Shown here one piece after another: positions 994-2,413 of a stretch of 6,352 nucleotides of DNA (its first letter is position 1; every line of letters begins with the position of its first letter). The stretch lies in the NCBI GenBank assembly GCA_946885765.1, contig CAMPHD010000194.1:1-6352 (forward strand), in the 5' to 3' direction. Under the pieces are notes generated by a model that saw only the letters and a list, made by a program, of their open reading frames with translations, had not been told where the DNA came from and did no database searches. Origin of the DNA: an uncultured Thalassospira sp. (GTDB taxonomy: Bacteria > Pseudomonadota > Alphaproteobacteria > Rhodospirillales_A > Thalassospiraceae). Both the position numbers and the translations under genes were made by a program.

Positions 994-1105
994 GTTTGCC
1001 TCTTTGCCCATTTTTTCGATGGTTTGATGATCTTTGTGGCACGAGTGAAGCATTCTGGAAAGAAAACTCTCCCATGCGCACCTGAGCATTGCATATTGCC
1101 CGCGT

Positions 1106-1134
1106 TTGAGTATTTTCGGCCCAGCGGAAATTAT
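1106..1134 (+). promoter_or_regulatory. candidate purM promoter
   Basis: TTGAGT (1106-1111, 4/6) and AATTAT (1129-1134, 4/6) are separated by 17 nt. Each hexamer alone is mediocre. What raises interest is that the implied start, about 1140-1142, falls at the beginning of the left arm of the long inverted repeat, so the RNA would open directly with the closing stem of the leader fold. It shares bases with the divergent DUF2066 promoter, so the two probably compete for polymerase. Confidence 0.4.
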
Positions 1135-1138: not shown

Positions 1139-1310
1139 CCCGCGTTTTTTATCAGTATGACGCTTTTTCTGTGGTTATCGATCTGATTAAAGGCGTCACT
1201 ATGGCGGTATTTCCCGGGCATCTGGTTCATCCGGCCCCGGAACATCGCGCGAATGACAATTTGAAGTCAGGGCGTACTGATGAAAAACGCGGGGTTTCCC
1301 GCTTTGTTTT
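1139..1310 (+). ncRNA. structured purM leader, candidate attenuator or riboswitch-like RNA
   Basis: Positions 1139-1159 are complementary to 1273-1293 over 21 nt; 19 pairs are Watson-Crick and the other two (1150 with 1282, 1158 with 1274) are U-G pairs. The enclosed 113 nt can form three smaller stems: 1158-1167 with 1189-1198 (10 bp, one G-U, sharing its outermost bases with the long stem), 1211-1218 with 1235-1242 (7 of 8 pairs), and 1254-1257 with 1266-1269. A multibranched RNA closed by a long stem is the result. The right arm overlaps the left half of the terminator-like hairpin at 1289-1302, so only one can form at a time. A purine-pathway ligand or a protein is a natural trigger but is only inferred. 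A MITE-like DNA element with terminal inverted repeats is the alternative, though no flanking target duplication is visible. Confidence 0.5.
1283..1310 (+). terminator. terminator-like hairpin in the purM leader
   Basis: GCGGG (1289-1293) pairs with CCCGC (1298-1302) across a GTTT loop. An A-run precedes it and TTTGTTTT (1303-1310) follows, and AAA/TTT can lengthen the stem with one bulged C. It lies 30 nt before the purM start codon and 18 nt before its ribosome site, so it would act as a conditional stop. The core stem is only 5 bp, so termination may be partial. Confidence 0.4.
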
Positions 1311-1339: not shown

Positions 1340-2413
1340 ATGACCGCCTCCAACGGCCTTACCTATAAGGACTCCGGTGTCGATATCGATGCTGGCAATG
1401 CCCTTGTCGATGCAATCAAACCGCTGGCCAAAGCAACCAGCAGAACCGGCGTTACCGGTGGTTTGGGGGGATTCGGCGCTTTGTTCGACCTGAAAGCTGC
1501 CGGTTATAATGATCCGGTTCTGGTTTCCTGCACCGATGGTGTCGGTACCAAGCTTAAAGTCGCCTTTCTGGCTGACAAACACGACACCGTCGGCATCGAC
1601 CTTGTCGCCATGAGCGTCAATGACCTTGTGGTTCAGGGCGCGGAACCGCTTCTGTTCCTTGATTATTTTGCCACCGGCAAACTTGCCGTTGAAAAGGCAA
1701 CCGATGTTGTCGCCGGCATTGCCGAGGGCTGCAAACAGGCAGGATGTGCGTTGATCGGTGGGGAAACCGCCGAAATGCCGGGCATGTATGCGGACGGTGA
1801 ATATGATCTGGCCGGTTTTGCGGTCGGGGCGGCGGAACGTGGCGAGTTGCTGGACGGTTCCAACGTTGCCGAGGGCGATGTGATCCTTGGTCTGGCATCA
1901 AGCGGTGTTCATTCCAACGGTTATTCGCTTGTGCGCAAGGTTGTTGAACTTGCCGGGCTTGATTACGCCGATGATGCTCCGTTTGCACCGGGCAAAAATG
2001 TTGGCGAGGCGCTTCTTGAACCGACCAAAATCTATGTCAAAAGCTGCCTTGCGGCGCATAAGGCCGGTCTGGTCAAGGCGCTGGCGCATATTACCGGTGG
2101 TGGTCTGACCGAAAACGTCCCGCGCGTTCTGCCGGAAAACCTGACGGCGGTGTTTGACGCCAGCACGTGGGAGTTCCTTCCGATTTTCAAATGGCTGTCC
2201 AAACAGGGCGGCATTCCGTCGGTTGAAATGGCGCGTACCTTTAACTGCGGCATTGGCATGTGCGTTGTGGTTCCGGCCGATAAGGCCAATGAGGCCGAAG
2301 CATTGCTGCGTGAAAACGGCGAAACCGTCAGCCAGATCGGTGTGATCGGCCCGCGTGCCGGTGATGGCCCGCAGGTCATCATCAAGAACATGGCCGCTGC
2401 ATGGGAAAAGTAA
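1340..2413 (+). CDS. purM: phosphoribosylformylglycinamidine cyclo-ligase (AIR synthetase)
   Basis: PurM closes the imidazole ring: FGAM plus ATP gives aminoimidazole ribonucleotide, ADP and phosphate, step 5 of de novo purine synthesis, in the cytosol. The 357-residue product is close to the usual 345-350. Family signatures are intact: the Gly-rich segment [14 protein letters not shown] (37-50), the nucleotide-binding [10 protein letters not shown] (66-75), [11 protein letters not shown] (86-96), [12 protein letters not shown] (139-150), [13 protein letters not shown] (186-198) and [16 protein letters not shown] (250-265) with the C-terminal GIGMCVVV (304-311). The start ATG has GAGGA (1328-1332) 7 nt upstream and begins [17 protein letters not shown], as is normal for the family. 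purN overlaps its end by 13 nt. Expression may be controlled by the structured leader upstream. Confidence 0.97.

What the first reader, a model, noticed from the sequence alone, without database searches (positions are those of the whole stretch)
1139..1310. Possible undescribed attenuator or riboswitch-like leader upstream of purMN
Seen: a 21-nt inverted repeat (1139-1159 with 1273-1293) with 19 perfect pairs and two differences that are both U-G compatible, enclosing three further potential stems. Its right arm contains the left half of a terminator-like hairpin (1289-1302, then TTTGTTTT), making the two folds exclusive. The best purM promoter candidate would start transcription at the left arm. 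Known: mutually exclusive antiterminator and terminator folds are the hallmark of leader attenuation, and E. coli purMN is instead controlled by the PurR repressor. Inference: this leader senses a purine-pathway signal or a protein, with the long stem as the ON state.
Basis: partly seen in the sequence, partly recalled or inferred. Interest (0 to 1): 0.75.

Follow-up and report, generated by a model that had tools for sequence, protein, structure and literature searches.

The report
Conserved attenuator-like leader before purM
In the marine bacterium Thalassospira the messenger RNA for a purine-making enzyme begins with a conserved folded leader whose pieces can pair in two competing ways, one of which would form a stop signal, so it looks like an undescribed on/off switch whose trigger is unknown.

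Summary
The inverted repeat and terminator-like hairpin upstream of purM are real (T. xianhensis-like Thalassospira). The long stem P1 plus an overlapping hairpin T precede purM in 28 of 29 Thalassospira genomes. No other copy was found in the genus and none in other genera of the order. P1 covaries (5 of 20 pairs changed on both sides; covariation score reached by 0 of 500 shuffles). It is not a MITE and matches no Rfam family.

Corrections: a promoter block conserved across the order lies at 1089-1116, so transcription should start near 1123, upstream of the left arm. T competes only with the basal pairs of P1. The loop is about 113 nt in the window but about 17 nt in the short form, so no ligand core inside the loop is shared.

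New: four segments (GCGG 1124-1127, CCGC 1140-1143, GCGG 1289-1292, CCGC 1299-1302) occur in 29 of 29 rows with the element. They allow 1:2+3:4 (terminator) or 2:3 (antiterminator). Computation favours the antiterminator by 2.7-10.5 kcal/mol, so readthrough is the default fold.

Best reading: a genus-specific transcription attenuator without conserved leader peptide or shared aptamer. The trigger is unknown and termination unproven. Side finding: near-cognate purM start codons in relatives.

The parts
1089..1116 (+). inferred purM promoter: TTGCAT (1089-1094), 16 nt, TATTTT (1111-1116); inferred start of transcription near A1123
   Evidence: a TTGCAA-N16-TATNTT-like block stands upstream of purM in other genera of the order (printed; pattern found in 30 of 40 loci, each with a 16-nt spacer); not mapped by experiment
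1124..1127 (+). segment 1, GCGG, can pair with segment 2 (mini-hairpin P0)
   Evidence: present in 30 of 30 rows; P0 predicted in 30 of 30
1139..1159 (+). left arm of P1; holds segment 2, CCGC (1140-1143)
1183..1196 (+). middle element of the long form, complementary to 1142-1155 at 13 of 14 positions (alternative stem P1')
   Evidence: 22 of 22 long-form rows, no covariation; pairing predicted before the right arm is made in 16 of 24 rows, not in the window
1204..1248 (+). interior hairpin P3 of the long form
1273..1293 (+). right arm of P1 (antiterminator); holds segment 3, GCGG (1289-1292)
1289..1302 (+). hairpin T, terminator-like; holds segment 4, CCGC (1299-1302)
   Evidence: hairpin with at least 4 G-C pairs in 29 of 29 rows
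1303..1310 (+). U-tract after T
   Evidence: simple U-tract test passed in 23 of 29 rows
1340..2413 (+). purM
   Evidence: TIGR00878
2401..3075 (+). purN, overlapping the end of purM
   Evidence: TIGR00639

Best explanation
A genus-specific cis-acting RNA leader that works as a transcription attenuator of purMN. RNA starting near 1123 can take two folds. ON: P1 (segments 2:3) captures GCGGG of the right arm, so T cannot form and RNA polymerase reads into purM. OFF: the left arm is held elsewhere (segment 2 by segment 1 in P0; in the long form the rest of the left arm possibly by the middle element), so 3:4 forms T and transcription stops at about 1303-1310. Shown: the sequences, their conservation and the covariation of P1. 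Computed only: the folds, and that ON is the more stable. Inferred: the promoter, that T terminates, that the balance is regulated. The trigger is unknown; most likely something that keeps the left arm from the right arm (a bound factor, or the speed of elongation).
For: P1 and T upstream of purM in 28 of 29 genomes; P1 covariation, 97.4% of cells paired, 5 of 20 pairs changed on both sides, score 0.179 against 0.084 in shuffles (0 of 500) and at most 0.046 when slid; T stem kept in 29 of 29 rows although its loop changes in length and letters; all four segments in 29 of 29 rows with the element; the gene upstream is divergent, so a terminator between this promoter and purM makes sense chiefly as an attenuator (inference); left arm less variable than right arm within the long form, 1 against 7 extra states over 19 columns each.
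Against: P1 is more stable than the T-forming fold in 29 of 29 rows by 2.7-10.5 kcal/mol, and the equilibrium probability of T is 0.00 in 29 of 29, so OFF needs an unknown agent. The U-tract test fails in 6 of 29 rows. Most P1 covariation separates two clades, hence few independent events. P1' shows no covariation and is not predicted in the window and its three closest relatives. The short form has no middle element. One genome, G028, does without P1 and T. No transcript data exist here.
Confidence: 0.45

Rival explanations
1. A structured 5' end that protects or helps process the purM mRNA (a 5' stem of the ompA kind, recalled, or a double-strand cleavage site). T is incidental, or stops only RNA that lacks the 5' part.
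For: P1 is by far the dominant fold. G028, without P1 and T, still has a predicted 5' mini-hairpin. Terasakiella relatives have an unrelated hairpin right after the same promoter block. The short form has no alternative partner of the left arm other than segment 1.
Against: The T stem is kept in 29 of 29 rows through changes of its loop, which a stabiliser does not need; T forms a terminator-like site in 23 of 29 rows.
Confidence: 0.3
2. A ligand- or protein-binding switch in the interior of the long form (P3 and the middle element), acting through P1' against P1. The short form would have lost sensing.
For: In clade A2 P3 has 97.6% of cells paired and a covariation score of 0.079 against 0.042 in shuffles (0 of 500), with one pair changed on both sides; similar hairpin architecture with other letters in the other long-form clade; middle element nearly invariant in 22 of 22.
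Against: Absent from 5 short-form genomes that keep P1 and T. The number of pairs changed on both sides in P3 (1 of 13) is no higher than in shuffles (500 of 500 reach it). No Rfam match.
Confidence: 0.12
3. The repeat acts as DNA: two inverted operators for a regulator, or constraint by the promoter and first transcribed bases only.
For: The left arm and the 19 nt before its end are nearly invariant, and G028 keeps AGCGGAATTTATCAAGCCC without P1.
Against: Differences between the arms are largely U-G compatible; the arms change together between long and short forms; a pattern search for the 5' segment gave scattered hits with up to 3 mismatches and the list was cut; one recurring 2-mismatch hit was read in one genome and looks like coding sequence.
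Confidence: 0.05
4. A MITE or other scattered repeat.
For: Inverted-repeat shape.
Against: Only the purM locus in 7 of 8 genomes with the window's form (1 of 8 had no match) and in 23 of 29 with a second long form (6 of 29 had no match: the 5 short-form genomes and G028); all first-look candidates were scored there.
Confidence: 0.01

Closest known systems
trp/his-type four-segment transcription attenuators (recalled)
   Same: segments 1:2 and 3:4 (terminator) against 2:3 (antiterminator)
   Different: no conserved leader peptide; segment 1 is only 4 nt at the very 5' end; the antiterminator is about 20 pairs and more stable than the terminator fold
Riboswitches and protein-controlled antiterminators that act on a terminator (recalled)
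   Same: a long stem whose 3' arm shares bases with a terminator
   Different: no core inside the loop is shared by the long and short forms; no Rfam match; no known trigger
PurR repression of purMN in E. coli (recalled)
   Same: same operon
   Different: a protein and DNA operator instead of a leader RNA; no search for a PurR site was made here
5' stabilising stems such as that of ompA (recalled)
   Same: stem close to the 5' end of the mRNA
   Different: here a terminator-like hairpin shares its base

Membership tests
Transcription attenuator (terminator/antiterminator leader) | terminator hairpin with U-tract between promoter and gene | tested here: met
   met in the window; hairpin in 29 of 29 rows, U-tract test in 23 of 29; promoter inferred
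Transcription attenuator (terminator/antiterminator leader) | alternative stem that excludes the terminator, conserved with covariation | tested here: met
   P1; exclusion over the basal pairs only
Transcription attenuator (terminator/antiterminator leader) | both folds reachable, balance set by a signal | tested here: inconclusive
   T-forming fold 2.7-10.5 kcal/mol less stable; signal unknown
Transcription attenuator (terminator/antiterminator leader) | termination observed | not testable with these tools
   needs transcript ends or in vitro transcription
Leader-peptide attenuator (trp type) | conserved short reading frame with ribosome-binding site in the leader | tested here: not met
   7 of 29 rows with the element have no such frame, and the frames found in the rest differ between clades
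Metabolite riboswitch | conserved aptamer core | tested here: not met
   not shared between long and short forms; a core limited to the long form is not excluded
Metabolite riboswitch | match to a described family | tested here: not met
MITE | copies at several unrelated loci | tested here: not met

The most novel reading that the evidence does not exclude
A self-contained four-segment switch with neither leader peptide nor shared aptamer. The first nucleotides of the transcript and the speed of elongation through the purine-rich right arm (GATGAAAAACGCGGGG) would decide between a quickly formed terminator pair (1:2, 3:4) and the more stable antiterminator, so that purM is read through when purine nucleotides are scarce. 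It would be found only in Thalassospira, whose purM begins with ATG, while many relatives may restrain purM with a near-cognate AUU, AUA or AUC start codon.
Probability: 0.1. Interest if true: 0.8.

Novelty: new variant of a known kind. Interest (0 to 1): 0.5.

Why it matters
The paper searches made here found no report of a purM leader in Thalassospira or of purM with attenuation, leader and Alphaproteobacteria together; the library holds open-licence papers only. A leader limited to one genus that exists as a long form, a short form and absent offers a natural series for asking which parts a terminator/antiterminator switch needs. The four-segment design without peptide or shared aptamer can be tested with a few in vitro transcription templates.

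Tried and rejected
Start-site switching at the left arm: folding from successive 5' ends between 1136 and 1144 flips the fold once about 6-7 nt are lost in most of the 22 long-form rows computed (the 5 short-form rows failed in that script), which recalled pyrC-type control. I dropped it as the main reading when the order-wide promoter block placed the start near 1123. MITE: rejected. Leader peptide: rejected. Operator with a regulon: pattern search gave scattered hits, list cut; of three fetched hits only one was read, the other two were not. Other genera: 20 non-Thalassospira loci scanned for long stems; of 131 non-Thalassospira order genomes with a PurM match, 40 upstream regions were fetched and printed; the terminator scan stopped with an error at L156, so 3 of 40 were not scanned. 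DNA searches of 317 order genomes with the long and short forms scored at most two candidates per genome; besides Thalassospira (26 and 8 genomes) they gave three and one short marginal matches. In the four regions fetched for these no PurM start was found; one match was not re-found with the long-form query. Gain or loss: G028 lies outside the rest with weak support (86/57), its union with the short-form clade is not rejected (p-AU 0.233), and the outgroup branches are long, so this is open. Papers: search listings with abstract starts only, none opened.

Full report
What was checked. The window holds a DUF2066 gene on the minus strand and purM (1340-2413), purN, a sulfatase-family gene and a HAD-family gene on the plus strand. 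PurM is 100% identical to that of Thalassospira xianhensis MCCC 1A02616. The reported repeat has 19 Watson-Crick and two U-G pairs, and the terminator-like hairpin with its U-tract is where it was said to be. 0 of 1000 dinucleotide shuffles of 1123-1339 reach its score. No Rfam family reaches its threshold in the window or in four related loci, and two weak matches in 1000-1400 are at chance level (E about 9).

Conservation. PurM was found in 29 of 29 Thalassospira genomes, and the region upstream was read in 29 of 29. In 28 the P1 stem and the T hairpin are present. Three forms occur: long (23 genomes; loop 113 nt in the window), short (5 genomes; loop about 17 nt) and absent (1 genome, G028, which keeps the promoter block and AGCGGAATTTATCAAGCCC). 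DNA searches that scored all first-look candidates find one locus, purM, per genome: with the window's form 7 of 8 genomes matched, with a second long form 23 of 29. Searches of 317 order genomes, which scored at most two candidates per genome, matched 26 Thalassospira genomes plus three others (long form) and 8 Thalassospira genomes plus one other (short form). The four others are short marginal matches (E 4.5e-4 to 9.5e-4), and no PurM start was found in the 0.9-1.2 kb fetched around them.

RNA structure. Alignment A3 has 27 distinct rows: the window and 26 genomes, leaving out two genomes with duplicate sequences and G028. 97.4% of the cells of 20 P1 pairs are standard pairs; 5 of 20 pairs have changes on both sides (22 cells). 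The covariation score is 0.179 against 0.084 in shuffles (0 of 500 as high) and at most 0.046 when slid. The number of double-changed pairs itself is reached by 28 of 500 shuffles. Much of the signal is the difference between long and short forms, so independent events are few. Within the long form the left arm shows 1 extra state and the right arm 7 over 19 columns each, so something besides P1 seems to constrain the left arm. One candidate is the middle element 1183-1196, complementary to 1142-1155 at 13 of 14 positions in 22 of 22 long-form rows; two positions vary and keep pairing, but nothing covaries. Before the right arm is made this pairing is predicted in 16 of 24 long-form rows, but has probability 0.17 or less in the window and its three closest relatives. 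The hairpin P3 keeps a similar architecture with other letters in the two long-form groups; in clade A2 its support is modest.

Start of transcription. Upstream regions of 40 purM genes of other genera (40 of 131 with a match) show a conserved block such as ATTGCAAACCGTCCGGGATGAAGTATCTTCGG. The pattern TTG[CA][AC]N-N15-18-TA[TA]NNT was found in 30 of 40, each with a 16-nt spacer. The window has TTGCAT-N16-TATTTT at 1089-1116, so the start should lie near A1123. The left arm is then transcribed in full, beginning 16 nt after the start. This is inference; no start has been mapped, and the search for one in print gave two unrelated listings.

The four segments. RNA from 1123 holds GCGG (1124-1127), CCGC (1140-1143), GCGG (1289-1292) and CCGC (1299-1302). 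All four are present in 29 of 30 rows (window and 29 genomes), the exception being G028. The 5' mini-hairpin 1:2 is predicted in 30 of 30. Two sets of pairs are possible: 1:2 with 3:4, in which T forms, and 2:3 within P1, in which it does not; in the window and G007 the 5' GCGG then pairs with segment 4. The second set is more stable in 29 of 29 rows by 2.7 to 10.5 kcal/mol, median 6.3 (30 C), and T has equilibrium probability 0.00 in 29 of 29. So the anatomy is that of an attenuator, but the computed default is readthrough. The T stem is present in 29 of 29 rows with varying loops; its U-tract passes a simple test (at least 5 T in 8, 2 of the first 3) in 23 of 29.

Interpretation. The most likely function is attenuation of purMN with P1 as antiterminator, where something must keep the left arm from the right arm to switch purM off. 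What that is cannot be said: no leader peptide is conserved and no core inside the loop is shared by the two forms. A stabilising or processing role of the 5' stem is the main rival; Terasakiella relatives carry an unrelated hairpin right after the same promoter block. Whether G028 lost the element or never had it is open.

Literature. Listings only: 0 papers hold Thalassospira and purM, 0 hold purM, attenuation, leader and Alphaproteobacteria. Looser searches listed 12 of 70 and 12 of 69 papers; none of the listed titles is about a purM leader in this group. Comparisons with trp-type leaders, ompA, PurR, pyrC and riboswitches are recalled.

Side finding. In many relatives the purM frame has no ATG, GTG or TTG between the in-frame stop and the conserved N-terminus (codons in the last two positions before it not counted). 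From the output, ATT is then the candidate in 12 of 40 loci and ATA in 2 of 40. Among the 80 loci (33 of which my motif did not anchor, 36 with a canonical candidate) 11 lack one, among them three Nitrospirillum and Azospirillum sp. B4 with ATA. The two sets overlap in part. Thalassospira and the Terasakiella relatives have ATG. No paper was found with 'AUU start codon' and purM or Alphaproteobacteria.

Noticed in passing
order loci L120, L128, L132, L133, L134, L143, L147, L149, L150, L151, L153, L156 (ATT), L152, L154 (ATA); L008-L011, L017 (ATA), L016, L063 (ATC), L019, L020, L024, L075 (ATT): purM of many Rhodospirillales relatives has no ATG, GTG or TTG between the in-frame stop and the conserved N-terminus; a near-cognate AUU, AUA or AUC start after a GAGGA-like site looks likely.
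   Followed up: partly
L124, L131, L139, L142, L144, L012, upstream of purM: Terasakiella relatives have an unrelated 5' hairpin (GGCGTTCAACAT..ATGTTGGACGC, then a T-rich stretch) right after the same promoter block.
   Followed up: partly
upstream of purM in 30 of 40 order loci; window 1089-1116: a purM promoter block with a fixed 16-nt spacer is conserved across the order beyond its two hexamers.
   Followed up: partly
window 1289-1302, minus strand: hairpin T also reads as a terminator on the minus strand (GCGGGAAACCCCGC then GTTTTTCATC).
   Followed up: no
L113 (G028), 1457-1479: one Thalassospira genome lacks P1 and T but keeps the promoter block and a 5' GCGG/CCGC mini-hairpin.
   Followed up: partly
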